The notes under the pieces are model-generated. The model searched no databases and was not told where the DNA came from. It was given only the letters and a program-made list of their open reading frames with translations. From assembly GCF_004349235.1 (NCBI RefSeq), contig NZ_SMKY01000013.1, positions 1 to 64,000 on the forward strand: a DNA stretch of 64,000 nucleotides, in the 5' to 3' direction. Below, one piece after another: positions 831-14,175 of the stretch; within the stretch, counting starts at the first letter, position 1, and every line of letters begins with the position of its first letter. This stretch comes from Actinomadura darangshiensis. GTDB taxonomy: Bacteria; Actinomycetota; Actinomycetes; Streptosporangiales; Streptosporangiaceae. The translations under genes and the position numbers were made by a program.

Positions 831-3800
831 ATGGGTCGCGGTTCGGCATGCCGTTGTGCGTCGGTTCTTCGGTTGTTGTTGTGGCGCCGCCCCGGCCCGA
901 TCGCCCGCTTGCTGGCGTTGACAATGGTCGCCGCTGTGCTGCAAGTTCCGATGGCATCGCCATTACCGGGACCCGTAGCCCACGCCGACGAGCCGAAGGC
1001 GGCGGCGACCGAGCAGCAGGCGGTCGCGGTGGCGAAGCAGACTGGGGACCCGGTCGAGGTCATCTCCCGCCGGGGGGAGAGTCGCACGGTGCGGGCGCTG
1101 CCGAACGGCCGGATCGAGGTCGAGCAGCATGTCCAGCCGATCCGTGCCCGCCAGGGCGGCGAATGGGCCGACATCGACACGGCTCTGCACCGCTCGGGCG
1201 ACGCGATCGTGCCGGCCGCGACCACGGTCGGGCTGCGGTTCTCCACCGGTGGGGACGATCCGATGGTGCAACTGACCCGGGCTGGCCGAAAACTGGCGCT
1301 GACCTGGCCGCAGCCGCTGCCTGAACCGTCCTTGGACGGTGACACCGCGGTGTACAAGGGCGTGGCCGGACCGGACGTCGACCTGCGCCTGCGGGCACTG
1401 TCGGACGGGTTCGCGCACGTCCTGGCGGTCAAGACCGCCGAAGCCGCGAAAGACCCGCGGGTGGCCAAACTGGTGCTCGGATTGTCGACCTCGGGGCTTG
1501 CTGTTCGCGAGGACCCTCAGAGCGGGATGGTGACGGCGACCGACACCGGGTCGGGCGCCGGAATGTTCGCCGCACCCGCACCGCAGATGTGGGACTCCTC
1601 TCGCGCGGAACCCGCGAGCGCGCCAGCCCGTGCCGCGCAAGACGCCGGGGAGCCGACCGAGGAACCGGCGATGGGTGCCAAGACCGCGCCGATCGAGGTG
1701 ACGGTGGCCGACGGGAAGGTCACATTGACGCCGGACCAGGCGTTGCTGACCGCGCCCGACACCACGTTCCCGGTGTACCTCGACCCGGTGTACAGGACGC
1801 TGAAGGCGTCGTCGTGGGGGATGGTGACGTCGGGCTGGCCGGATGAGAACTATCCGATGTTCAACGGCAAGTCCACCGAGGGGATGGGGCGGTGCGAGGT
1901 TGCCAAGGACCCCAACTGCGTCAAGAACCAGACCAAGCGGTTGTTCTACCGGTTGCCGCTGCCGTCGCTCAAGGGCCGCTACATCCAGAGCGCCGAGGTC
2001 ATCGCGTACGAGACCAGTGCCTACAACTGCAGTAACAAGACCTCGGTGCAGTTGTGGCGGACCAACACATTGAAGTCGTATGCGACGTGGAACAACACCA
2101 ACAGTTCGTCGGTGTGGGATGCGCATCTGGCCTCGCGAGATGTGGCGTTCTGCTCGAAGGCGCCGGTGGAGTTCGGCGGGTCAACGCTGCGGGCGCATGT
2201 GCAGGACGCGGTGAACAAGGGCTACGGCACGATCACGTTCGGGCTGAAGGCCTACAGCGAGTCGACGATGGACTGGTGGAAACGGTTCGCCGATGACGCC
2301 TACCTGAAGGTGCAGTACAACAACCCGCCCAAGCAGCCCGACACCGACACGATGTTCGCCAAGCCCGGCGGGAGCTGCGCCTCGTCGGGCAGCGCCAAGT
2401 GGGTCAACGTGGTGCCGACGGTGTTCGCGACCCTCGTCGACCCGGATACCGAAGACAAGAACAAGGTGCAAGGCCAGTTCACATTGCACTGGGCCAACAA
2501 CCCGGACGGGTCGGACTGGGGCCCGAAATGGACGTCGGGTCTGGTCGGTCCGAAGACGTCGGGTACCCAATTCCAACAGGAGTTGCCGCCGACGATCCCG
2601 AAGAACACGAGTATCGGCTGGGGCGTCCGCGTCTGGGACGGCGCGCAATGGGGCCCGTGGAGCTACGACGGCGCGCAAACGGGCTGCTACTTCCTCTTCA
2701 ACCCGGACCTGCCGGCCAAACCCACGATCACCTCGACGGACTACCCGGCAGATGGTCCTTGGACGGACGGAGTCGGCGTCCCCGGCACCTTCACCATCAG
2801 TGACGCCGCCGGTCTCGCCGACCGGTACGTAGTCTGGCTGAACGGTGTCCAATACACGACCGTGACCACCAGTGCGGGCGCTGCGCGGCAGGTCCAGATC
2901 ACACCGACGATGTCAGGCCCGAATCACCTGACCGTGGAGGCGTTCACTCCTTCTTCACAAGACGGCAGCACGTTCACCTATCAGTTCCGCGTGAATACCG
3001 GGAAACCGCCTAAGGCGCGATTCTCCCTGGACGAGCCCGCTGGCTCGACGGCTGTGCAGGCTGTTACCCGGGACGGTGACCCGGCCGTTTCGGCGGCGAC
3101 ACACGGAACCGTCACGTTCGGTACTGATGGGCAGGATGGCGATGCGATCCAGTTGGATGGCTCTACGGGATACGCGGCCACGAATGGCCCGGTGATCGAC
3201 ACTACGAAGAGTTTCGCGGTGTCGGCTTGGCTGAAGGCGGACGGTTCGGTTTCCTCACCCACCAGGAACTTCACCGCCGTCTCCGCCCGCGGCGAGAGCA
3301 AGAGTGCCTTCTACTTGAAGTATGTCGAGGCCACGGGGCGGTGGGTGTTCGCGAGGACCGCCGTCGATGGCGATGACCCGGGCTGGTTTCAAGCGGAGTC
3401 GAAAGACCCGGCTCAGACCGATGAATGGACGCACCTGGTCGGGGTCTTTGACGCGGTGGCCAAACGGCTGCATATCTACGTCAACGGTGAGCGGGGCGTC
3501 GACAGCCCCGAAGTGAGCTCGGTGTGGAATGCCAGCGAGGGGTTGGAGATCGGGCGGTCGCAGTGGGGCGGCACTCCCGTCGACTACTGGGCAGGACAGA
3601 TCGACGATGTGCGGGTCTACGACCGGATCGTGGGCCAGGAAGAAGTCAATGAACTCGTCAACCAGCACCCGGTGCTGAAGGCGCGTTGGAAACTCAACAA
3701 GGCTGTGGACCTTTCCAGCCCCGGTGAGCCATCACGGACCCCGCCGGTGCCTGCGCTGACCCTGAGCCAAGGCGCGACCATCGATCCGGACGCGCAGTTC

Positions 3801-4400
3801 ATGTGGGCTTTGGGGGCGGGAGGGCTGAACCTCAACGCCACCGAGCACGCTTACGCGCAGTCGCAGGACTGGGTGATCCACACCGACGAGAGTTTCACGG
3901 TCGCGGGATGGGTCCGCAACGTTGGCAGGCCGCAGCTACCCGCCACGGTGTTCTCCCAAGCCGGAGCCAACGCCAACGTATTCACGCTCCGGTACGTCCC
4001 GGGCGAGGACCCGGAACTGCAGGGAGGCTGGCAGGCCGAGATGCGCAACTCCGACAGCTCCGCTGGCGACCCGATGGTGGCATCGCACTCGGCCTTCCCT
4101 GAAGGGAACTGGGCTCATATCGCGGTCGTGTACGACGCATTGCGGGATCGCCTCAGCCTCTACGTCAACGGGGAACTGGACGAGACCTCCGCGGGGGTGT
4201 CACAGGAGGACCATGTGGTGGGGTTCCCCACTGAGAACGCCCTCCTGCAAGTGGGGCGGAACAAGCTCGGTACCGGCGACGCCACGGAGTCCTGGCCGGA
4301 CGCCATCGACGACATATGGGTCTACCAGGGTGCGCTGACCAAGGACCAGATTCACATTCTGGCCGGGCCAACCGAGATCACCACTGAGGACGGACCCTAG
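831..4400 (+). CDS. Secreted DNRLRE/LamG-domain protein, RHS companion
   Basis: This 1189-aa exported protein begins with a basic N-region and a hydrophobic core ending in A-H-A at residues 50-52, a good signal-peptidase I site. An N-terminal spore-/RHS-associated stretch (about 60-320) precedes a DNRLRE-like beta domain (about 325-500) containing several Cys. A fibronectin/Ig-like linker (about 505-640) follows, then two LamG/concanavalin-like jellyroll domains (about 729-943 and 947-1180) whose ends read DIWVYQGALT and DDVRVYDRIV. Such LamG proteins often sit directly upstream of actinomycete RHS genes. The next gene starts about 70 nt downstream on the same strand. Inferred role: a surface or adhesion partner for RHS toxin delivery. 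Its biochemical function is not known from sequence. Confidence 0.85.
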   Translation: MGRGSACRCASVLRLLLWRRPGPIARLLALTMVAAVLQVPMASPLPGPVAHADEPKAAATEQQAVAVAKQTGDPVEVISRRGESRTVRALPNGRIEVEQHVQPIRARQGGEWADIDTALHRSGDAIVPAATTVGLRFSTGGDDPMVQLTRAGRKLALTWPQPLPEPSLDGDTAVYKGVAGPDVDLRLRALSDGFAHVLAVKTAEAAKDPRVAKLVLGLSTSGLAVREDPQSGMVTATDTGSGAGMFAAPAPQMWDSSRAEPASAPARAAQDAGEPTEEPAMGAKTAPIEVTVADGKVTLTPDQALLTAPDTTFPVYLDPVYRTLKASSWGMVTSGWPDENYPMFNGKSTEGMGRCEVAKDPNCVKNQTKRLFYRLPLPSLKGRYIQSAEVIAYETSAYNCSNKTSVQLWRTNTLKSYATWNNTNSSSVWDAHLASRDVAFCSKAPVEFGGSTLRAHVQDAVNKGYGTITFGLKAYSESTMDWWKRFADDAYLKVQYNNPPKQPDTDTMFAKPGGSCASSGSAKWVNVVPTVFATLVDPDTEDKNKVQGQFTLHWANNPDGSDWGPKWTSGLVGPKTSGTQFQQELPPTIPKNTSIGWGVRVWDGAQWGPWSYDGAQTGCYFLFNPDLPAKPTITSTDYPADGPWTDGVGVPGTFTISDAAGLADRYVVWLNGVQYTTVTTSAGAARQVQITPTMSGPNHLTVEAFTPSSQDGSTFTYQFRVNTGKPPKARFSLDEPAGSTAVQAVTRDGDPAVSAATHGTVTFGTDGQDGDAIQLDGSTGYAATNGPVIDTTKSFAVSAWLKADGSVSSPTRNFTAVSARGESKSAFYLKYVEATGRWVFARTAVDGDDPGWFQAESKDPAQTDEWTHLVGVFDAVAKRLHIYVNGERGVDSPEVSSVWNASEGLEIGRSQWGGTPVDYWAGQIDDVRVYDRIVGQEEVNELVNQHPVLKARWKLNKAVDLSSPGEPSRTPPVPALTLSQGATIDPDAQFMWALGAGGLNLNATEHAYAQSQDWVIHTDESFTVAGWVRNVGRPQLPATVFSQAGANANVFTLRYVPGEDPELQGGWQAEMRNSDSSAGDPMVASHSAFPEGNWAHIAVVYDALRDRLSLYVNGELDETSAGVSQEDHVVGFPTENALLQVGRNKLGTGDATESWPDAIDDIWVYQGALTKDQIHILAGPTEITTEDGP

Positions 4401-4470: not shown

Positions 4471-7400
4471 GTGCGCCGCCTGGGCGAGGCGGCCGCGATG
4501 GAGGATGCCGTGAACGCAGGCCGGAAGGTGTCTGGTCGCACCCGCCGCAGGACGCTGGTGCTGGGATCACGCCGAGCCATTCTGCTGGCCGCGGGGGCCA
4601 TGGCGGTGGTGATGCCCGCCGGTCTGCTGTCGGTGCCATCGGCGCTGGCTGAGCCGCCGGCCTCGGGCCCGCCGAAGGTGGCGACTCACGAGCGGCCGGT
4701 GCCGGGGCATGACCTGAAGGTCCGGCCCCGCAGAACCGAACCGCCAAAGCCCGGCCCAGCCGCGAAGGTGACCTGGCCGTCCCCTGGCAGCGCAGAGGTG
4801 AGCGTCCCGTCGGGTCCCACCGGCAAGGCCAAGTCGTCGAGAGGCGCGGGCGCCGCCGCGTCTCGCGCAGGCAAGCTCCCCGTGGAGGTTCTCCCACCGG
4901 GTAGGACGCTTGACGCTGCCACCCCAGCCGCTGGGAAGGTGCGCATCCGGGTTCTTGGTCAGCAGACCACCCGCAGTCTCGGCGTTGACGGTCTGGCGTT
5001 CACCGTGGCCCGCACGGACGCCGCGGCACCGGGCAGGGTAGGGGTGCGGCTGGACTACTCGAAGTTCGCGCAGGCGTTCGGCGGTGCGTACGGCGCCCGG
5101 TTGCGGCTTGTGCAGTTGCCATCGTGTGCCCTCACCACGCCGACGATGCGGGAGTGTCGGACGGGTAAGCCAGTCACAGCGAGCAATAACGGAGCTGCCA
5201 AGACACTCACAGCGGATATCGAAGCGGTTCCGGCGGCCGGTTCCGGTTCGCGGGCGGCGGCGGGAGAGAACGGGACACTGCTGGTCGCAACGGCCGGCTC
5301 CGAGGGTTCGCAGGGCGACTACAAGGCCACGTCGCTGGAGGCGTCGGCGACGTGGAGCGCCGGTGGTAATACCGGTGACTTCACCTGGTCGTATCCGATG
5401 CGGGTGCCACCCGTGCCCGGCGGTATGAACCCGAAGGTCGAGATCTCTTATTCGTCCGGAAGCGTGGATGGCAAGACCGCCAACACCAACGGTCAGCCGT
5501 CCTGGGTTGGTGAAGGTTTCGACCTCTGGCCCGGCTACATCGAACGACGCTTCAAATCTTGCGAGGATGATGGCGCGCCCAAGGACGAGTGGGGCAATTC
5601 ACCGGGGGACCAGTGCTGGGGGTACGACAATGCCACAGTCACCTGGAACGGCAAGGGCGGGGAGCTGATCAAGGCGTCCGACGGAACCTGGCGGATGAAG
5701 GGCGACGACGGCACCAAGTTCGAGAAGCTCACCAGCTCCTCCGTCGGCAACGGCGACGAGGACGGGGAGTACTGGAAAGTCACGACGACCGACGGCACCC
5801 AGTACTTCTTCGGGCTGAACCGGCTGCCGGAATGGACGAAGGGCAAGCCGGAGACGCAATCGACGTGGACCGTGCCCGTTTTCGGTGACGATGCGGACGA
5901 GCCCTGTCACAAATCTACCTTCAAAGAGTCTTGGTGCCAGCAGGCCTACCGGTGGAATCTGGACTACGTCGTCGACTCATCCGGCAACGCCATCAACTAC
6001 ACCTACGGCCAAGAGATCAACCATTACGGCCGCAACCTCAAGGCGGAAGACGAAACGTCCTACGTACGTGGCGGTTACCTGAAGACGATCTCCTACGGGC
6101 TCCGCAAGGACGCCTTGTTCGCCAAGGCGCCCGCGCAGGTAACCTTCACCACCTCGGAGCGGTGCGTCCCGGACACCGGCTTCGACTGCGACCCGTCCAA
6201 GATCGGCGACAAGCCCGACTACTGGTGGGACGTCCCGTGGGATCTGCACTGCGACTCCGGCCAGGAATGCAAGGACACGCACGGCAGCCTCGCGCCGACG
6301 TTCTGGTCCCGCAAGCGGCTTACCGAGGTCACCACTCAGATCCTCAAAAGCGATGGGTCGGGGTACCGACCGGTGGACTCCTGGTCGTTGACCCACAAAT
6401 GGGGTTTGGCCGATGTCGAGCGTGACCTGCTGCTGACTGATATTCAGCACACCGGGCACGCCGCCGATGGTGGCACGACCATATTGCCGAAGGTCACCTT
6501 CCATCCGATCCAGATGGACAACCGGCTGGATGAAGTCGGCGACGACATCTTGGGTTACGTTCGCTACCGGGTCGGCGCGATCGACGATGAATCCGGCGGG
6601 CGAATCGACATCAACTACTCCGACTCCGACTGCTCCTTGAGTGATCGGCCAACGCCGGAGACCAATACCACCAGGTGCATGCCGGTGATCTGGACCCCGC
6701 CGGGCCGAGAAAAGCCGATCACCGACTGGTTCCACAAGTATGTGGTCACTTCGGTATTCCAGACCGACCGGACCGGCCTGTCACCGGACATGGTCACCAA
6801 GTACCAGTACGTGGGCGATGCGGCCTGGCATTTCGACGACGACAACGGACTGACCAAGGATAAGAACAAGACCTGGTCGCAGTGGCGCGGTTACGGGCAT
6901 GTCCGCACGTTCACCGGCGATCAGGCCGATCCTGCCACGCAGAGTGATGCCTATTACCTGCGAGGAATGGACGGGGACCGTAAGACCAAGGACGGCGGTA
7001 CCAAGTCGGTCACCGTCTCCGACGGCGAGGGCGGCACCTACACGGATCACGACGCGTTGGCTGGTTTCACGCTCAAGACCGTTCAGTACACCGAGCCCGG
7101 CGGCAACGTACACGCCAAGACCGTCAACACCCCGTGGCGGGTGCAGACCGCCTCCCAGACCCGTTCGGGAAGCACGATCACCGCGAACGTGGTGAGCGCC
7201 GCCTCGTCTCACACGTGGACGGCCAAGGACGGGGGCGGCTGGACCGAGACCAAGACCGAAACCGGCTTCACCGCCTCCGGCCCCGGGATCGGCCGAGTCA
7301 CCTCTGTCAGCGACCTTGGGGACGTCACCACTCCGGCTGACGACAAATGCACCCTGACCACCTATGTCGACAACGTCGGCTCCTGGATGTTGAGTTATCC

Positions 7401-10400
7401 GTCCCGGGTAGAGAGCCTTTCGGTCGCCTGCGCCACAACGCCCACCCGTCCGGACAATGTCGTTACCGATGCCCGTACCTACTACGACAACGGTGGCCTG
7501 GGCGACGCCCCGTCCAAGGGGGACATCACCAAGGTCGAGAACCTCGCCGACTATGACGATGGCGCGCCTCGGTATGTAACGCAGGCCACGACGACGTATG
7601 ACACCTTTAGCCGTGTCACGCAGGTGAAGGACGCGCTCGGGCAGCCGACCACCACGGCCTATATCGATCCCCAGGGCCTGACCACCAAGGTCACGACCAC
7701 CACTCCGCCGGCCAAACCCGAGGTCGCCTCGTCGGCACTGACCACCGTCAAGGAACTGGATCCGGCGTGGGGACAGCCCACCAGAATCATCGATGCCAAC
7801 AACCTCAAGAGCGACCTGGCCTATGACGGTCTAGGCCGGCTGCACAAGGTTTGGCTGCCCGACCGCTCCAAGGCCACCGGCCAGAACCCGAACTACCAGT
7901 TCGACTACCAGGTGGCCGAGGGGCAGATCGTCGCCGTCACCACCCAAGGCCTCACCGCGGCCGGCGCGCAACGGCTTGCGAAGATCGAGCTACTGGACGG
8001 GTGGCTTCGCCCGAGGCAGACACAGGTCCCCGGCCCCGATGGCCGACTGATCAGCGACACCTTCTACGACAACCGCGGCCAGGCCGTCACGACATACGCG
8101 CCCTACACGGCAGAAGAACCTCCCAAGGCAGAACTGTTCGGCATCGACGCCCCGGGCAAGATCGAAACACAGAACCGCACCGAGTACGACGGGCTCGGCC
8201 GCAAGACCGCCGAGCGTGTCACCTCGCACAACGGCAACCAGCCCGAGCAGGAACTGTGGCGCACCACCTACTCCTATGGCGGCGGCAACCGAGTCTCGGT
8301 CACCCCGCCCGAGGGCGGCACCCCGTCCGCGCAGATCACCAATGCCCGCGGGCAGGTGATCGAACGCCGCCAGTACAAGGCCGCCACCCCGGCCGGTGAG
8401 TTCGACGCCACGACCTACGCCTACACCCCAGCCGGCGAGATCGCCTCGGTCACCGACCCGTCCGGCAACACCTACACCACCACCTACGACCTACGCGGCC
8501 GCAAGACCAAGACCACCGACCCCGACAAGGGCGCCGCCACCTACGCCTACAACGACCTGAACCAGCTGACCTCCACTACCGATGCCCGCGGTAAGAAGGT
8601 CTTCGCCGAATACGACGGTCTCGGACGCAAGACCGCCACCCGGAAGGACGCGACGGACGGCCCGCTGCTGACTTCGTTCACCTACGACACCGCAGTACGC
8701 GGCAAGGGCAAACCGGCCACCGCGACCCGCCATCATGACGGCGCCGCCTACACCAGCCAAGCCCGTGTCTACGACTATCTCGGTCGCCCCCAGGTCACCG
8801 GCATCACCATCCCGGAGGAACAGGGTGCGCTCGCCGGAAGCTACGGCTTCAACACCATCTACAACCTCGACGGAACCCTCAAATACAACGGCCTGCCCGC
8901 CGCCGGCGGCCTGCCCGCCGAGAACACCGAGACCGGGTATGACACCTGGCTGAGGCCGACCAGCCTGCATAGCGCGAGCGGCACCTACGTTGGCAGCAAA
9001 ACCACCTACACCCCCACAGGCAAACTCCAGCGACTGGAGCTCGGTGGCACCATCGGCAAACGCGTCTACGAGACCTTCTCCTATGAGTACGGCACCCAGC
9101 GACTGGCTACTGCCCAGACCCTCCGTGAAGGCCGGACGGAATTCGACCGCAATGCCGCCTACCACTACACGGATTCCGGCGCCATCACCTCGATCACCGA
9201 CAGCACCACCGCCGGTATCGACAACCAATGCTTCACCTACGACCACCTTCAGCGCCTCACACAAGCCTGGACTCAGGGCACCACTGATGCCTGCGCCACC
9301 GAACCCGCCGATTCCCTGATCGGCGGCCCGGCCCCGTACTGGCAGACCCTCACCTACGACACGGCCGGCAACCGCAAAGCCGAAACCCAGCACGGCATCG
9401 CCGGTGTTGCCGACACCATCCGCACCTACACCTACAATCCCGCCGGACAAGGCAATCGCCTAAACCAGGTCACCTCGGCCGGACCCACAGGCCAGCGCAC
9501 CGACACCTACGCTTACGACGCCACCGGCAACACCACGCAACGCGTCATCGACGCTGGCCCCTCCAACACCGGCCAGACTCTGGAATGGGACACCGAGGGC
9601 GAACTGGCCAAGGTCACCGAGAACGGCAATGACGCCACCTTCATCTACGACACCGGTGGCAACCGCCTGATACGCAAAGACCCCGCCGGCTCGACCCTGT
9701 ACCTGCCCGGTGGCACCGAACTCCGCGTCCTCAGCGGTTCCACCACCGTAACCGGCACCCGCTACTACGGCTTCGCCGGTCAGACCGTTGTGATGCGCAC
9801 CTCCGACGGCACCGTCACCTATCTGACCGCTGACCACGCAGGCAGCGCACAGATCGCCATCAACGCCGCCACCCAGGCCAGCACCATCCGCCGCTTCACC
9901 CCCTTCGGGGGAATTCGCGGCATGGACGACGACGCCACCTGGCCAAACGACAAGGGCTTCGTCGGCGGTACCCAGGACCCCACGGGCCTCACCCACCTGG
10001 GCGCCCGCGAATACGACCCCGGCACCGGCCGCTTCATCTCCGTCGACCCCCTCATGGACCAGGCCGACCCGCAGCAGATGAACGGCTACACCTACGCCAA
10101 CAACTCACCCGTCACCAACGCCGACCCTGACGGCGACATGTGCCGCAGGACTCGGGACGGCATGGAGTGCTTCAACGGCGATGGCGTGGATCGCCGCCCG
10201 AACAACAAGGGCGGTTATGACGTCTACGACGGCCACGGCACCAGAGTGGCCTCATCCGGCGGAGGGATAAACTCCCGAACGGCACGCAGAGTCGGTGCCT
10301 GGAACACCATCCCAGTTCCCCAGAGCATCGATATCGTGCGCTTCCGGGAAAAGTTCTGGAACTACTTCTACCAGTTCGCCAACCCGGGCGGATATCGTTA

Positions 10401-11484
10401 TGCCCCGGCTGTCCAAGCGACCGACATCGAAGCCGCCCTGCACGCTTGCCGCGATATGGGCGAATGCGTCCATTCAATGTTCTACCTGAACCTGAACAAG
10501 GCATGGGTCGACCTCAACGGTGGGATCGGGATCCTCTTCAGCGGTGGTCGCGGACGCCGTGGACGTCCCGGCGTCAGAGCAGTGGCCGGGCGGCGGATGT
10601 TGGCCAAGGCGGTCCGAGGCCTAGGCGGCTGCAGCAGCTTCGTTCCTGAGACCGACGTCCTCATGGCCGACGGCACCCACAAGTCCATCCAAGACGTCAA
10701 GGTCGGCGATAAAGTCCTCGCCACCGATCCCGAAACAGGCGAAACACGCGCGCAACCAGTCCTGGGCACCATCACCAGCAAGGGCGACAAGAAACTCGTC
10801 CAGATCACCGTGGACTCCGATGCGCCGGCCTTGGTCCCGACGTCTGGCCGGGCTGCCGAGCAGGGGTCGGCCAAGACCTTCGGCAAGTCCGCCAAGAGGG
10901 GCCTCGTCGTCGCCACTGACACCCACCCCTTCTGGGTCACCGGTGACATCAACACCTGGGTCAAGGCCGCCGATCTCAAACCCGGCATGTGGCTGCGCAC
11001 CAGCGCCGGCACCTACGTCCAGATCACCGCCACCAAACACTGGACCACATATCACCAGCGCGTCCACAACCTCACCGTTGCCAACAGCCACACGTATTAT
11101 GCCGAGGCGGGTGACCGGCCTGTCCTTGTCCACAACTGCGGCGGATATTTTAAAGGGCATGCTTCGACATGTTCGTGCGAAGGTAGGTCGGGCTACGATA
11201 TAACCCTTGAAAGTAGTGCCCACGCAGGGGAGGCGACTGGCAGTGCTGGCAACCTCACTCGTCATTCTCTGCAGCGTTTGGCGCAGCGTGGGGTTTCAGA
11301 AGAGCAGGCTCAGGCGACTCTTGCAAGAGAACCATTCTCCTACCATCACGACGATCAATGGAAAACTGGATATTATGATCCCGAATCCAAGATATTCGTC
11401 GCAAAAACTATCGATGGTAACATCAATACTGTCATGACCGGAGTGGATCAGAATTACATCAATAGACTCAGGGGGGTTCGGTGA
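4471..11484 (+). CDS. RHS-repeat polymorphic toxin with pre-toxin Hint domain and DUF4258-like tip
   Basis: This 2337-aa secreted protein has a signal peptide ending ALA at residue 60. The start is uncertain: GTG 4471, ATG 4498, or GTG 4510, which has GGAGG just upstream. An SpvB/RHS N-terminal region (about 290-700) is followed by YD-repeats with YDGLGR-type motifs (about 1100-1850) and the RHS core motif (DPTGLTHLGAREYDPGTGRF, about 1836-1855). A Hint autoprotease domain begins at Cys2054 and ends VHN-Cys2223. The final 114 residues are the toxin. They carry H-S-x-x-R-x-x-QRGVS near the start and GYYDPESKIFVA near the end, resembling DUF4258-type RNase-fold toxins (BECR superfamily). Base composition drops sharply after Cys2223. 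The partner gene overlaps the stop by 4 nt. Toxic activity is inferred, not shown. Confidence 0.88.
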   Translation: MRRLGEAAAMEDAVNAGRKVSGRTRRRTLVLGSRRAILLAAGAMAVVMPAGLLSVPSALAEPPASGPPKVATHERPVPGHDLKVRPRRTEPPKPGPAAKVTWPSPGSAEVSVPSGPTGKAKSSRGAGAAASRAGKLPVEVLPPGRTLDAATPAAGKVRIRVLGQQTTRSLGVDGLAFTVARTDAAAPGRVGVRLDYSKFAQAFGGAYGARLRLVQLPSCALTTPTMRECRTGKPVTASNNGAAKTLTADIEAVPAAGSGSRAAAGENGTLLVATAGSEGSQGDYKATSLEASATWSAGGNTGDFTWSYPMRVPPVPGGMNPKVEISYSSGSVDGKTANTNGQPSWVGEGFDLWPGYIERRFKSCEDDGAPKDEWGNSPGDQCWGYDNATVTWNGKGGELIKASDGTWRMKGDDGTKFEKLTSSSVGNGDEDGEYWKVTTTDGTQYFFGLNRLPEWTKGKPETQSTWTVPVFGDDADEPCHKSTFKESWCQQAYRWNLDYVVDSSGNAINYTYGQEINHYGRNLKAEDETSYVRGGYLKTISYGLRKDALFAKAPAQVTFTTSERCVPDTGFDCDPSKIGDKPDYWWDVPWDLHCDSGQECKDTHGSLAPTFWSRKRLTEVTTQILKSDGSGYRPVDSWSLTHKWGLADVERDLLLTDIQHTGHAADGGTTILPKVTFHPIQMDNRLDEVGDDILGYVRYRVGAIDDESGGRIDINYSDSDCSLSDRPTPETNTTRCMPVIWTPPGREKPITDWFHKYVVTSVFQTDRTGLSPDMVTKYQYVGDAAWHFDDDNGLTKDKNKTWSQWRGYGHVRTFTGDQADPATQSDAYYLRGMDGDRKTKDGGTKSVTVSDGEGGTYTDHDALAGFTLKTVQYTEPGGNVHAKTVNTPWRVQTASQTRSGSTITANVVSAASSHTWTAKDGGGWTETKTETGFTASGPGIGRVTSVSDLGDVTTPADDKCTLTTYVDNVGSWMLSYPSRVESLSVACATTPTRPDNVVTDARTYYDNGGLGDAPSKGDITKVENLADYDDGAPRYVTQATTTYDTFSRVTQVKDALGQPTTTAYIDPQGLTTKVTTTTPPAKPEVASSALTTVKELDPAWGQPTRIIDANNLKSDLAYDGLGRLHKVWLPDRSKATGQNPNYQFDYQVAEGQIVAVTTQGLTAAGAQRLAKIELLDGWLRPRQTQVPGPDGRLISDTFYDNRGQAVTTYAPYTAEEPPKAELFGIDAPGKIETQNRTEYDGLGRKTAERVTSHNGNQPEQELWRTTYSYGGGNRVSVTPPEGGTPSAQITNARGQVIERRQYKAATPAGEFDATTYAYTPAGEIASVTDPSGNTYTTTYDLRGRKTKTTDPDKGAATYAYNDLNQLTSTTDARGKKVFAEYDGLGRKTATRKDATDGPLLTSFTYDTAVRGKGKPATATRHHDGAAYTSQARVYDYLGRPQVTGITIPEEQGALAGSYGFNTIYNLDGTLKYNGLPAAGGLPAENTETGYDTWLRPTSLHSASGTYVGSKTTYTPTGKLQRLELGGTIGKRVYETFSYEYGTQRLATAQTLREGRTEFDRNAAYHYTDSGAITSITDSTTAGIDNQCFTYDHLQRLTQAWTQGTTDACATEPADSLIGGPAPYWQTLTYDTAGNRKAETQHGIAGVADTIRTYTYNPAGQGNRLNQVTSAGPTGQRTDTYAYDATGNTTQRVIDAGPSNTGQTLEWDTEGELAKVTENGNDATFIYDTGGNRLIRKDPAGSTLYLPGGTELRVLSGSTTVTGTRYYGFAGQTVVMRTSDGTVTYLTADHAGSAQIAINAATQASTIRRFTPFGGIRGMDDDATWPNDKGFVGGTQDPTGLTHLGAREYDPGTGRFISVDPLMDQADPQQMNGYTYANNSPVTNADPDGDMCRRTRDGMECFNGDGVDRRPNNKGGYDVYDGHGTRVASSGGGINSRTARRVGAWNTIPVPQSIDIVRFREKFWNYFYQFANPGGYRYAPAVQATDIEAALHACRDMGECVHSMFYLNLNKAWVDLNGGIGILFSGGRGRRGRPGVRAVAGRRMLAKAVRGLGGCSSFVPETDVLMADGTHKSIQDVKVGDKVLATDPETGETRAQPVLGTITSKGDKKLVQITVDSDAPALVPTSGRAAEQGSAKTFGKSAKRGLVVATDTHPFWVTGDINTWVKAADLKPGMWLRTSAGTYVQITATKHWTTYHQRVHNLTVANSHTYYAEAGDRPVLVHNCGGYFKGHASTCSCEGRSGYDITLESSAHAGEATGSAGNLTRHSLQRLAQRGVSEEQAQATLAREPFSYHHDDQWKTGYYDPESKIFVAKTIDGNINTVMTGVDQNYINRLRGVR

Positions 11485-11726
11485 CCATGGTCGATGTAAA
11501 AGTTACATATGACAAAAGCGCGAACGCGGCGTACCTGTATTTCAGCAATCATCCGGACCGTGCGGAAGTGGCGCATATGTATCCATGTGATCCAGTTGAG
11601 GTGGGGGGAATGATCAATCTCGACTTTGATAAGAATGGGCGCATTATAGGAATCGAGGTCCTGGCCGCCAGTTCGAAGCTGCCAAAGTGGATCCTTGAGG
11701 CAGCCGAGCGACTGGATGTTGACTGA
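11481..11726 (+). CDS. DUF2283-family protein, probable immunity partner
   Basis: This 81-aa protein starts at GTG 11481, overlapping the toxin stop as GTGA. ATG 11487 is an alternative, and a G-rich ribosome site lies at about 11471-11477. The sequence matches DUF2283: VTYDKSANAAYLYFS at the start, GGMINLDFDKNGRIIGIEVL in the middle and an LP-containing end. DUF2283 proteins frequently sit beside DUF4258 proteins in predicted toxin-antitoxin pairs. Here the toxin-like partner is the C-terminal module of the RHS protein, so I infer this is its cognate immunity protein. Its low GC matches the toxin tip rather than the RHS body, which suggests the two moved together. Confidence 0.78.
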   Translation: MTMVDVKVTYDKSANAAYLYFSNHPDRAEVAHMYPCDPVEVGGMINLDFDKNGRIIGIEVLAASSKLPKWILEAAERLDVD

Positions 11727-11751: not shown

Positions 11752-12037
11752 TCTGGGCGAGGTCTACTATCGGAAGAAGCGTGGCGAGAACCGGGTGATG
11801 TCCGGGACCGCCGATGATGTCGACGCAGTGATCAACGATCTCTTGGCTTCTCCGGCCGATCAAGACATGGCTGAACTGCACTCCCTGGAGCGAACTTTGC
11901 TGCCGTCAGGATTTCCTGACAACGAACTTCTGGTCGGGGTCGACAGCACTCTCCAAGTCGGCGCCCTGGAGTTTATGGACGCCGATGGCAACGTAGTTTC
12001 ACGTGGCTTGCTGGGAGGTAGCAGGGCTCCGGCGTAG
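11752..12037 (+). pseudogene. Truncated Imm1-family immunity gene (copy 1)
   Basis: From about 11752 to 12027 this matches the intact Imm1 gene near 13749-14024 at a constant offset of 1997 nt with no gaps. By eye there are about 30 mismatches in 275 nt. The readable frame from GTG 11795 gives 80 aa, including SLERTLLPSGFPDNELLVGV and GALEFMDADGNVVS. After the GG-rich turn, homology stops and the frame ends in SRAPA-TAG. The C-terminal Imm1 part (the EVP...RRAV.EFL..G.RPT segment of the other copy) is missing. An upstream EVYYRKKRGENR stretch suggests the original N-terminus lay before GTG 11795. It is probably non-functional. Confidence 0.72.
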
Positions 12038-12145: not shown

Positions 12146-13246
12146 AGAGGATCTGCGGTTTCCCCACTTTGGTGATCGTTTGAGTGGAATGATCGTCTTG
12201 TGGCGAAGAAGGGGCGTAGAGGAGCGGCTGGCCGGGGTGCGGATGCTTGAGCAGGGGCTTCCGGTGGACAAGGTCGCGGCCGCGGTTGAGGTTGATCGGT
12301 CGACGTTGTTGACGGGTGGAAGAACTACCGGCTGATCGGTCCGGAGTCGTTGCGGACGAAGAAGGCGCGCGGCTCGGACGGCAAGCTGAGTGAGGCGCAG
12401 CTGCGGGAGTTGTATGCGTTGTTGGTGGGAGCCGATCCCCGGCAGTTGAGCTTCGGGTTCGCGTTGTGGACCCGCGCGATGGTTGGAGAGCTGATCTTCC
12501 GGCGGTTCAGGATCCGGGTGTCGGTCGCCACGGTGGGCAGGACGCTGTGGAGGTTGGGGATGTCGCCGCAGAAGCCGCTGTACCGCGCTTACCAGCAGAA
12601 TCCAGAGAAGGTCGAGAAGTGGAAGGCTGAGACCTATCCGGAGATCCGCCGGCGGGCCGCCGAGGAGGGCGCGGAGATCTTCTTCGTAGATGAGGCGGCC
12701 ATCCGGACCGACCTCCACTCCGGGACCAGGTGGGCGCCGATCGGCCAGACCCCGGTCGTGGAAATGACCGGGGCACGTACATCGGTAATGATGATTTCAG
12801 CGGTGTCGCCGAAGGGGAAACTGCGCTTCATGGTCCACGACGAGGGCCTGAAGTCCGAGGAGTTCATCAGCCTCTGCCGCTGGCTGCTGGACGATACCGA
12901 CGGCAAGGTGTTCCTGGTCGTGGACGGCGGCCGCATCCACACCTCCAAGATGACCCGCCGGTTCGTGGAGCGCACCGAACGCCTGGAGCTGTTCTTCCTA
13001 CCGCCCTACTCGCCCGAACTCAACCCCCGATGAGAGAGAGTGGGTGTGGAAGAACGTGAAGCGTGACCGCGTCGGCCGTCAGGCCGTCCAGAGCAACAAG
13101 GAGCTCCGCCTCTTCGCCACTGCCGCCCTGCACCGGCTCCAGAAGCTTCCCCGGCTCGTCCTGTCGTTCTTCGCCGACCTCCACCTCGCCTACATCGCGG
13201 CCTGACCAGAAACTCACAATTCAAGTCTAGAAACCACAGATCCCCT
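12146..13246 (+). mobile_element. Degenerate IS630-family insertion sequence
   Basis: The element is bounded by imperfect terminal inverted repeats: AGAGGATCTGCGGTTTC at the left and, reverse-complemented, AGGGGATCTGTGGTTTC at the right, agreeing at 15 of 17 positions. Each end abuts a TA dinucleotide (12144-12145 and 13247-13248), as expected for IS630/Tc1-type insertion into TA. The single transposase gene inside carries frameshifts, so the element looks immobile. It sits about 115 nt downstream of the break in Imm1 copy 1, so it did not directly cut that gene. Confidence 0.82.
12200..13205 (+). pseudogene. Frameshifted IS630-family transposase
   Basis: Pieces of one DDE transposase lie in different frames. 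The N-terminal HTH part (ERLAGVRMLEQGLPVDKVAA) breaks near 12310. The main part, about 12330-13033, holds the HTH_29/DDE_3 region with the first Asp in FFVDEA and the second in LVVDGG-RIH. A further frameshift near 13027-13040 separates PPYSPELNP from the third-acidic segment (DE...WVWKNVKRDR) and the end LHLAYIAA. The short extra run at the second break looks like accumulated mutation rather than the single slippery site used by frameshifting IS elements. It is probably inactive. Confidence 0.82.
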
Positions 13247-13450: not shown

Positions 13451-13708
13451 GTGACCGACTTCGAACGTATTTTGGCGAGAGTTTTCGTGGAAATAGTGAT
13501 ATCCATTGACCTGAGCGATGATGACGATATCGACCCTGATGTGGCGACGGGTCTTCTGGAGCCTGTCGCGGCTCTTCTGCAAGAAATGCCGAGAGCGGAT
13601 CGGCGGCGTTTGACCGAATTCATGCTCGAGTACGCGAACGACGAGGCCAACGCGGAGAGAAGTGCTACGGCCCTTGATCTGCCGACCGCTTTGGGGCTGG
13701 TCGAATAG
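13451..13708 (+). CDS. Small acidic orphan protein, candidate immunity protein
   Basis: This 85-aa product starts at GTG 13451. I do not assign a named family. It begins MTDFERILARVFVEIV, then has an acidic patch (SIDLSDDDDIDPDVA) and a helical remainder with LLQEMPRADRRRLTEFML and an acidic C-terminus ending LGLVE. It is compact, soluble and strongly acidic. It is wedged between a dead IS element and an Imm1 gene downstream of an RHS toxin, a position typical of orphan immunity genes. The GTG is preceded by AT-rich DNA. The immunity role is inferred from context only. Confidence 0.55.
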   Translation: MTDFERILARVFVEIVISIDLSDDDDIDPDVATGLLEPVAALLQEMPRADRRRLTEFMLEYANDEANAERSATALDLPTALGLVE

Positions 13709-13791: not shown

Positions 13792-14175
13792 GTGATGCTG
13801 GGGACCTCCGAGGATGTCGACGCAGTGATCAATGACCTCTTGGCTGGTTCGGCTGATCAAAACATGGCTGAACCCCACTCCCTGGAGCGAAGTCTGCTGC
13901 CGTCAGGATTTCCTGACCACGAACTTCTGGTCGGGGTCGACAGCACTCACCAAGTCGGCGCCTTGGAGTTTATGGACGCCGATGGCAATGTTGTTTCACA
14001 TGGCTTGCCGGGAGGCAGAGACGTAGCTTCCTATTTCATCGTTGGGAATGAGGTCGAGTTCCCGGATCACTCGGAGGTTCCTGTCGACCTTGTTCGTCGG
14101 GCCGTTAAGGAGTTTTTGCTGTCTGGAGGGCAGCGGCCAACATGTGTTCAATGGCGGCGTCCTGAGTTCTGGTGA
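13792..14175 (+). CDS. Imm1-family immunity protein (copy 2, apparently complete C-terminus)
   Basis: The frame from GTG 13792 (or ATG 13795) encodes 127 aa with the Imm1 pattern: HSLERSLLPSGFPDHELLVGV, GALEFMDADGNVVSHGLPGG, then YFIVGNEVEFPDHSEVPVDL, RRAVKEFLLSGGQRPTCVQW and a terminal PEFW. Imm1 proteins neutralise RHS/CDI-type toxin tips. The in-frame DNA before the GTG encodes GEAYYRKEHRENR, which looks like the native N-terminus of the family, but no ATG/GTG/TTG precedes it before the upstream gene. The 5' end may therefore be damaged or initiate at an unusual codon. No cognate toxin is adjacent, so it is an orphan. Confidence 0.75.
   Translation: MMLGTSEDVDAVINDLLAGSADQNMAEPHSLERSLLPSGFPDHELLVGVDSTHQVGALEFMDADGNVVSHGLPGGRDVASYFIVGNEVEFPDHSEVPVDLVRRAVKEFLLSGGQRPTCVQWRRPEFW

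What the first reader, a model, noticed from the sequence alone, without database searches (positions are those of the whole stretch)
11138..11726. RHS toxin ending in a DUF4258-like module with a DUF2283 immunity partner
The tip behind Hint Cys2223 carries H-S-x-x-R-x-x-QRGVS and GYYDPESKIFVA, DUF4258-like features, and is overlapped by a DUF2283 gene. DUF4258-DUF2283 pairs are known to me as chromosomal toxin-antitoxin-like neighbours. Here the toxin half appears as a secreted polymorphic-toxin warhead and the antitoxin half as its immunity protein, linking an intracellular TA family with contact or secreted warfare.
Basis: partly seen in the sequence, partly recalled or inferred. Interest (0 to 1): 0.75.

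Follow-up and report, generated by a model that had tools for sequence, protein, structure and literature searches.

The report
Secreted RNase-like toxin with DUF2283 immunity
A giant bacterial weapon protein carries, as its swappable tip, a likely RNA-cutting toxin whose probable antidote is a small protein of an unstudied family, and the same toxin-antidote duo also occurs as an ordinary stand-alone gene pair and on other exported proteins.

Summary
Confirmed and extended. Residues 2224-2337 of the RHS protein form a low-GC, recombined warhead behind a Hint domain. It is DUF4258-like: the window copy scores below Pfam's cut-off (16.6 of 25 bits), but 6 of 6 aligned tips pick DUF4258, profile comparison with stand-alone DUF4258 proteins gives 92% (31 columns), and the modelled core (HH-EEEE-H) matches colicin E5, colicin D and CdiA toxins first (Z 6.5 at best). 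The next gene is a clear DUF2283 (E 5.7e-15). Nine of nine complete tips have DUF2283 directly behind. In 396 genomes of the phylum, 52 of 146 DUF2283 hits directly follow a DUF4258 hit. In the order, 16 of 71 inspected DUF2283 genes follow a protein ending in a DUF4258-like domain; five of these were scanned and have a WXG100-like start: a second delivery form. Best reading: BECR-fold RNase toxin plus immunity protein, one family pair used both as stand-alone toxin-antitoxin-like module and as polymorphic toxin. Toxicity, RNase activity and binding are inferred. DUF4258 CDI warheads are in print; DUF2283 as partner was not found in the library searched.

The parts
4471..11484 (+). RHS polymorphic toxin gene, 2337 aa (start codon GTG 4471 uncertain); N-terminal export-signal-like stretch, SpvB, RHS/YD repeats, Hint, warhead
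   Evidence: the signal-like stretch is read by eye
10624..11136 (+). Hint (pretoxin HINT) domain, residues about 2052-2222, ending in H-N before Cys2223
   Evidence: PT-HINT best stretch 2145-2222, Hint 2052-2099
11137..11178 (+). Cys/His linker C-x6-H-x3-C-x-C directly behind the Hint end; H and the two later C are invariant in the 6 aligned tips
   Evidence: sequence
11140..11481 (+). warhead (tip), residues 2224-2337; DUF4258-like, BECR-type core from about 11248 on (tip residues 37-114)
11487..11726 (+). DUF2283 gene, 79 aa, proposed immunity protein (alternative GTG start at 11481 overlaps the RHS stop)

Best explanation
The locus is a polymorphic toxin-immunity pair. The RHS protein is exported, its Hint domain cuts itself and frees the last 114 residues, and this tip acts in a competing cell as a metal-independent RNase of the BECR fold (DUF4258-like; tRNA or mRNA as target is open). 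A histidine in the first helix (tip His42) and a Thr in the fourth strand (Thr97, invariant in the tips, or Thr100) with Arg46/Arg50 are the likely active-site residues. The DUF2283 protein, made from the next gene and probably translationally coupled, binds the tip and protects producer and kin. The same two-family pair exists as stand-alone toxin-antitoxin-like modules, so RHS (and, separately, WXG100-like proteins) appear to have taken up a whole pair, the toxin becoming warhead and the antitoxin immunity protein. Shown: domain families, gene order, cassette boundary, recurrence. Inferred: export, cleavage, RNase activity, neutralisation, direction of the transfer.
For: DUF2283 E 5.7e-15. 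DUF4258 is the one family that 6 of 6 scanned tips pick at E <= 1, best E 0.0023; two more tips, L094 and L095, give 15.4 and 20.5 bits. hhalign of 6 tips against 16 stand-alone proteins upstream of DUF2283: 92%, E 6.5e-7; control with the immunity alignment 0.7%. Joint alignment of 45 domains from four contexts: helix-1 His in 43 of 45, Arg50 in 41 of 45, Ser/Thr at the Thr100 column in 40 of 45. Model core HH-EEEE-H, pLDDT blocks 71 to 87 between residues 41 and 110; rows 1-12 of the VIA-align comparison are colicin E5, colicin D or CdiA toxin domains. 9 of 9 complete tips have DUF2283 directly behind. 52 of 146 DUF2283 hits in 396 genomes have DUF4258 immediately upstream on the same strand, median gap 36 bp. 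In two genomes the stand-alone partner is DUF2283 plus HTH_17, the make-up of an antitoxin with a DNA-binding domain. GC step at the Hint/tip border.
Against: The window tip is below Pfam's cut-off (16.6 of 25 bits), the hhalign match covers only 31 columns, and Foldseek gives no match at E <= 0.001 (best E 0.35); Z 6.5 is middling by the tool's own note. Within the tips the Thr100 column is Thr in only 6 of 9. No solved-structure relative by sequence for the tip and no convincing one for DUF2283. 94 of 146 DUF2283 hits in the phylum and 49 of 71 inspected in the order have no detected DUF4258-like partner. 85 of 137 DUF4258 hits are not next to DUF2283, and the 31 best-scoring DUF4258 hits (54.5 bits and up) are all unpaired; the paired ones score 53.3 bits or less: DUF2283 goes with a divergent part of the family. 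A 2025 review lists DUF4258 with the order antitoxin-toxin and fusions to MqsA, not with DUF2283 in the passages seen (PMC11980606). No experiment; complex not predicted.
Confidence: 0.65

Rival explanations
1. The pair is a toxin-immunity pair, but the BECR-like fold no longer acts as an RNase (for example a gyrase poison as in ParE, or another activity).
For: RelE/ParE superfamily members differ in target, and the 2025 review lists the mechanism of DUF4258 as unknown (PMC11980606, passage). Structure scores are only middling.
Against: Rows 1-12 are colicin E5, colicin D and CdiA toxin domains; the conserved helix-1 His and strand-4 Ser/Thr fit the active-site pattern described for BECR RNases in PMC3482391 (passages).
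Confidence: 0.2
2. DUF2283 is not the immunity protein but a regulator or a passenger that happens to travel in the cassette.
For: Many DUF2283 genes stand without a detected toxin; stand-alone DUF2283-HTH_17 fusions look regulatory.
Against: 9 of 9 tips keep it directly behind; pairing in four different toxin contexts; RHS-linked and WXG-linked DUF2283 fall on different branches, as expected if each follows its own toxin. A regulator role does not exclude antitoxin activity.
Confidence: 0.1
3. The tip is not related to DUF4258; the short helix motif is a chance resemblance and the domain is a new fold.
For: Sub-threshold Pfam score and a 31-column profile match. The tip profile's own weak rows are mostly unrelated: five of six rows at 15.6-20.9 bits I judge to be chance.
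Against: 6 of 6 tips agree on DUF4258; the sixth weak row, L099 (17.2 bits), is a stand-alone small gene right before a DUF2283 gene; the tip profile gives 28.2 bits on L165, itself DUF4258 with E 2e-8; structure rows.
Confidence: 0.06

Closest known systems
DUF4258 (PF14076), a family listed with the RelE/ParE (BECR) superfamily (PMC11980606, passages)
   Same: Core motif [ST]-x-H-A...R...R-x-[IV]-S, strand-4 Ser/Thr; stand-alone members sit directly before DUF2283
   Different: Tip is divergent (16.6 of 25 bits), has its own QWKxGYYDP...KTIDGN block and a Cys/His linker, and is the end of a 2337-aa protein; the review gives the order antitoxin-toxin, here the toxin gene is first
CdiA toxin class 8 with DUF4258 in E. 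coli, 'tRNase (?)' (PMC11630599, table passage)
   Same: DUF4258 as C-terminal warhead of a contact-dependent weapon
   Different: CDI chassis in E. coli; the passage seen names no DUF2283 partner; its immunity gene was not compared here
Colicin E5 / colicin D tRNases
   Same: Best structural rows, Z 5.4-6.5 over 70-77 residues
   Different: Sequence identity 7-14%; different immunity proteins and delivery (recalled)
Tox-RelE with Imm54 and other BECR toxins of polymorphic toxin systems (PMC3482391, passages)
   Same: BECR RNase behind RHS/HINT with an immunity gene; classical RelE seen there in a single polymorphic toxin
   Different: DUF2283 does not occur in the part of that text held; there the fold is shared with toxin-antitoxin systems, here the partner family is shared too
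Stand-alone DUF4258-DUF2283 gene pairs (e.g. Thermus thermophilus plasmid pTthSNM1-1e)
   Same: Same two families, order and strand
   Different: Small proteins without Hint or RHS parts

Membership tests
RHS polymorphic toxin | RHS repeats and RHS-associated core | tested here: met
   RHS_repeat E 8.8e-16, Rhs_assc_core E 1.2e-16
RHS polymorphic toxin | variable C-terminal tip behind a conserved core, compositionally distinct | tested here: met
   GC and GC3 step; tip homologs on differing chassis
RHS polymorphic toxin | immunity gene directly downstream | tested here: met
   as gene order: DUF2283 next in 9 of 9; function not tested
RHS polymorphic toxin | delivery into another cell and killing | not testable with these tools
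   experiment needed
DUF4258 (PF14076) | score over Pfam's gathering cut-off | tested here: not met
   window tip 16.6 of 25 bits; so it is called DUF4258-like, not a Pfam member; the WXG-linked relative L130 passes with 29.1
DUF4258 (PF14076) | shared conserved core with clear members | tested here: met
   hhalign 92% over 31 columns; 43 of 45 His, 41 of 45 Arg
BECR-fold RNase | N-terminal helices followed by a four-stranded meander | tested here: met
   as a prediction: H41-49, H54-61, four strands between 66 and 100
BECR-fold RNase | structural match to known BECR RNases | tested here: inconclusive
   they fill rows 1-12, but Z is at most 6.5 and Foldseek E is 0.35 at best
BECR-fold RNase | metal-independent RNA cleavage | not testable with these tools
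   experiment needed
DUF2283 (PF10049) | score over cut-off across the whole model | tested here: met
   55.6 bits against 23, model positions 1-49
type II toxin-antitoxin module | adjacent co-oriented toxin and antitoxin genes (for the stand-alone pairs) | tested here: met
   52 pairs of hits in 39 genomes
type II toxin-antitoxin module | antitoxin neutralises toxin by binding | not testable with these tools
   no experiment; DUF2283-HTH_17 fusions in L099 and L166 are suggestive only

The most novel reading that the evidence does not exclude
DUF2283 is a general antitoxin/immunity family for DUF4258-type RNases, and the complete pair has been moved at least twice between intracellular toxin-antitoxin modules and exported weapons (RHS/Hint on one side, WXG100-like type VII effectors on the other, perhaps also small signal-peptide proteins), leaving orphan DUF2283 genes that protect Actinomadura and relatives against neighbours' weapons.
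Probability: 0.5. Interest if true: 0.7.

Novelty: new variant of a known kind. Interest (0 to 1): 0.55.

Why it matters
It would give a function to DUF2283, a common small family (77 of 396 genomes of the phylum) that no main text in the searched library names, and a case where both members of a toxin-antitoxin-like pair, not just the toxin fold, serve as warhead and immunity protein. That makes the exchange between internal toxin-antitoxin systems and inter-bacterial weapons directly testable with small proteins.

Tried and rejected
Sequence searches of solved structures with the tip and with DUF2283 (single and profile) gave no row I trust, e.g. antibody chains for DUF2283. PADLOC gave nothing at E <= 1 and PHROGs only a weak row for DUF2283 (E 0.051). 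tblastn of the tip against plasmids: no match; DUF2283: 28 plasmid records, of which I opened eight: one shows an annotated DUF4258 partner, five show other listed neighbours, two have no gene table there. Structural comparison of the DUF2283 model gave no telling match (best Z 5.3; 4.6 for an EF-Tu/CdiA/CdiI entry); not used. The NCBIfam row 20S_bact_beta for the tip (E 0.048) and Pfam RecX_HTH1 (E 0.12) I take as chance.

Rows dropped before a count: for alignment A4 I had 21 upstream ORFs and used 16; L036, L043, L046 and L047 were left out as more divergent, L049 because I read it in the wrong frame; one of the 16 (L044) has no Pfam DUF4258 hit of its own. Of the 10 genomes matched by the tip profile in the class I dropped five weak rows after reading their ORFs by eye (L096, L097, L098, L100, L101) and kept four tips plus L099. 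In one search, 71 of 79 DUF2283 places were inspected; eight weak ones were not fetched. The HMMs were trained on some of the sequences they then found (six of the 16 WXG-linked, the six tips of A2), so that count is a classification, not an independent test. In one search a slip in my script swapped the strand labels for the 26 loci with the gene on the minus strand and lost their immunity hit; for these I rely on the upstream ORFs. The tree holds 68 domains that I picked, with 23 of the toxinless copies.
Full report
OBSERVATION. The window holds an RHS gene at 4471-11484 (+) of 2337 aa. Pfam and NCBIfam find SpvB, RHS repeats, the RHS core and a Hint domain that ends at residue 2222. What follows, residues 2224-2337, has GC 0.503 and GC3 0.474 against 0.652 and 0.824 in the RHS core; 1 of 223 windows of that size along the ORF is as low, the mark of an exchanged cassette. 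The next gene, 11487-11726 (or from GTG 11481, overlapping the RHS stop by four bases), is DUF2283 with E 5.7e-15. At E <= 0.1 the window's genome has this one DUF2283 match and one DUF4258 match, the latter being the tip itself at 16.9 bits, below cut-off. Two genomes of the same genus have contigs of the same length as Actinomadura soli and A. barringtoniae records, so the genus is probably Actinomadura.

IS THE TIP DUF4258? Taken alone the window copy gives only E 0.01, below Pfam's cut-off, so I call it DUF4258-like. Relatives make the case. A search of 149 related genomes with the DUF2283 protein gave 16 with a match: besides the window, two carry a complete homologous tip and one a remnant; in ten (L007-L016) no tip was found by tblastn. 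A scan of genome contigs with three tips gave five loci: Actinocrinis puniceicyclus, Streptomyces sp. DvalAA-43, S. tateyamensis, A. barringtoniae and A. soli. Six of six tips scanned singly pick DUF4258. Profile comparison with 16 stand-alone proteins that sit before DUF2283 gives 92%, though over only 31 columns around the first helices; the control against the immunity alignment gives 0.7%. In a joint alignment of 45 domains (9 tips, 16 WXG-linked, 19 stand-alone, 1 small exported-looking protein) the helix-1 His is kept in 43 of 45, the following Arg50 in 41 of 45 and a Ser/Thr at the Thr100 column in 40 of 45; in the tips alone that column is Thr in 6 of 9, whereas Thr97 is invariant in the six aligned tips.

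FOLD. The tip model is poor over the first 37 residues and fair after (blocks of 71 to 87 pLDDT between residues 41 and 110), with two helices, four strands and a last helix. Foldseek's first row is 1tfk, an E. coli ribonuclease with inhibitor (colicin D as I recall it), E 0.35; the second is colicin D, E 0.54; none reaches 0.001. In the realignment by VIA-align 2, rows 1-12 are colicin E5, colicin D or CdiA toxin domains, Z 6.5 to 4.9; toxin-antitoxin entries (HigBA, MqsR/MqsA) and further CdiA complexes appear lower down among unrelated rows. This fits the BECR fold, defined in PMC3482391 as N-terminal helices and a four-stranded meander with, in many members, a Ser/Thr in strand 4 and, in several of the colicin E5/D group, an N-terminal His (passages read). 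Z under 8 can be only a common arrangement, so the fold is likely, not proven.

THE PARTNER. The complete tips I found are all followed at once by DUF2283: the window, L019, L020, L021, L022, L023 and L093, L094, L095, 9 of 9, from nine different genomes as far as contig names and sizes tell. In seven the tip lies behind a Hint domain (window, L094 and L095 by Pfam; L020-L023 by eye). L095 is an ORF of 362 aa with Hint and no RHS match; L094 belongs to an open frame of 3379 aa whose first part I did not read. L019 and L093 are short frames beginning in the last residues of Hint, that is, detached cassettes. L005 (same place as L105, Actinomadura G017) keeps only the last part of the tip, again before DUF2283.

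STAND-ALONE PAIRS. In 396 genomes of the phylum there are 146 DUF2283 places in 77 genomes and 137 DUF4258 places in 85 genomes (E limits 0.001 and 0.05). In 52 cases DUF4258 lies immediately upstream on the same strand, median gap 36 bp between the matched stretches, in 39 genomes; the single opposite order belongs to a tandem of two pairs. The 31 best-scoring DUF4258 places are all unpaired; the pairs involve the lower-scoring, more divergent members, as with the tip. A Thermus thermophilus plasmid record annotates the same pair. In two genomes (L099, L166) the partner is DUF2283 plus HTH_17 in one reading frame, the build of an antitoxin with a DNA-binding domain.

A SECOND DELIVERY FORM. 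In 297 genomes of the order a profile of RHS-linked DUF2283 gave 79 places in 71 genomes; I inspected 71 places. 22 of 71 have a DUF4258-like toxin upstream on the same strand: two complete RHS tips, one remnant, 16 open frames of about 300 to 400 aa, two stand-alone genes (L165, L166) and one 125-aa protein with a signal-peptide-like start (L018). The distance is mostly under 30 nt; it is 99 nt in L123 and about 240 nt in L120. Of the 16 I scanned five against Pfam: five of five match WXG100_2 at the N-terminus (E 3.5e-5 to 1.8e-7, one over cut-off) and four of five match DUF4258 at the C-terminus (E 0.037 to 1.3e-6, one over cut-off). These look like type VII effectors with the same warhead family and the same partner family; I did not look for the secretion genes. 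49 of 71 have no such toxin; among them are orphans in Actinomadura and a separate group without any partner.

TREE. A FastTree of 68 DUF2283 domains that I picked puts the 16 WXG-linked ones in one group (support 0.973), 16 of 18 stand-alone ones in another (0.846), and the RHS-linked ones, mixed with toxinless copies of Actinomadura and related genera, on a third side. Short domains give weak inner branches, and rooting was by midpoint only, so the direction of movement is inference.

MECHANISM. Most likely the RHS protein is exported, Hint frees the tip, the tip cuts RNA in a rival cell, and DUF2283 binds and blocks it in kin. Family, order and recurrence are shown; export, cleavage, activity and binding are inferred from the named families. 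On checking I set the confidence of this full statement to 0.65, because my first figure did not add up with the odds given to the rivals.

PRINT. The library names DUF4258 in eight papers and DUF2283 in none; the Pfam and COG numbers of DUF2283 gave one mention, where the number is attached to a calcineurin-like protein. The 2025 review of the RelE/ParE superfamily lists DUF4258 with unknown mechanism, order antitoxin-toxin and MqsA fusions (PMC11980606, passages) and its text does not hold the words RHS or secretion. A CdiA class with DUF4258 marked 'tRNase (?)' is in print (PMC11630599, passage). PMC3482391 says that classical RelE was seen in a single polymorphic toxin and that the BECR fold cuts across both kinds of system (passages). 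A search joining WXG100, polymorphic toxin and DUF4258 listed three papers, none with DUF4258 (listing). Hence: the warhead family is known; DUF2283 as its immunity partner, and the WXG-linked form, I did not find in these searches. Supplements and most subscription journals were not searched.

Noticed in passing
window 11795-12037 and 13792-14175: Two Imm1 immunity genes behind the RHS pair, in a 270-nt repeat of 90% identity; the second is full (E 2.6e-20), the first is cut short (E 0.075). Looks like an immunity array without its toxins.
   Followed up: partly
window 12180-13033: Transposase pieces (DDE_3 and HTH_33 in 12350-13030) lie between the two Imm1 copies, next to the cut one.
   Followed up: partly
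window 13451-13708: Small 85-aa ORF without a family that resembles by eye the end of an ORF downstream of the A. soli RHS pair (L004 2233-2610, no Pfam match); possible further immunity gene.
   Followed up: no
window 11137-11178: C-x6-H-x3-C-x-C right behind the Hint end; kept in the six aligned tips and, by eye, in L093 and (with a shorter spacing) L094, missing in L095. Possibly a metal-binding linker.
   Followed up: partly
L115 and L116 (Actinomadura G029, G044): DUF2283 genes lacking about 24 first residues; in L115 the ORF just before ends in what reads like a Hint start, so an RHS locus seems to have lost its toxin.
   Followed up: no
L128, L133, L142, L146, L155 and others: A DUF2283 group beginning H-P-G-T-W-T-Y-D-P with no toxin gene seen beside it, so part of the family must do something else or be orphan antitoxin.
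   Followed up: no
window 831-4400: 1189-aa protein with Laminin_G_3 (two stretches) directly before the RHS gene; possible partner of the RHS shell.
   Followed up: no
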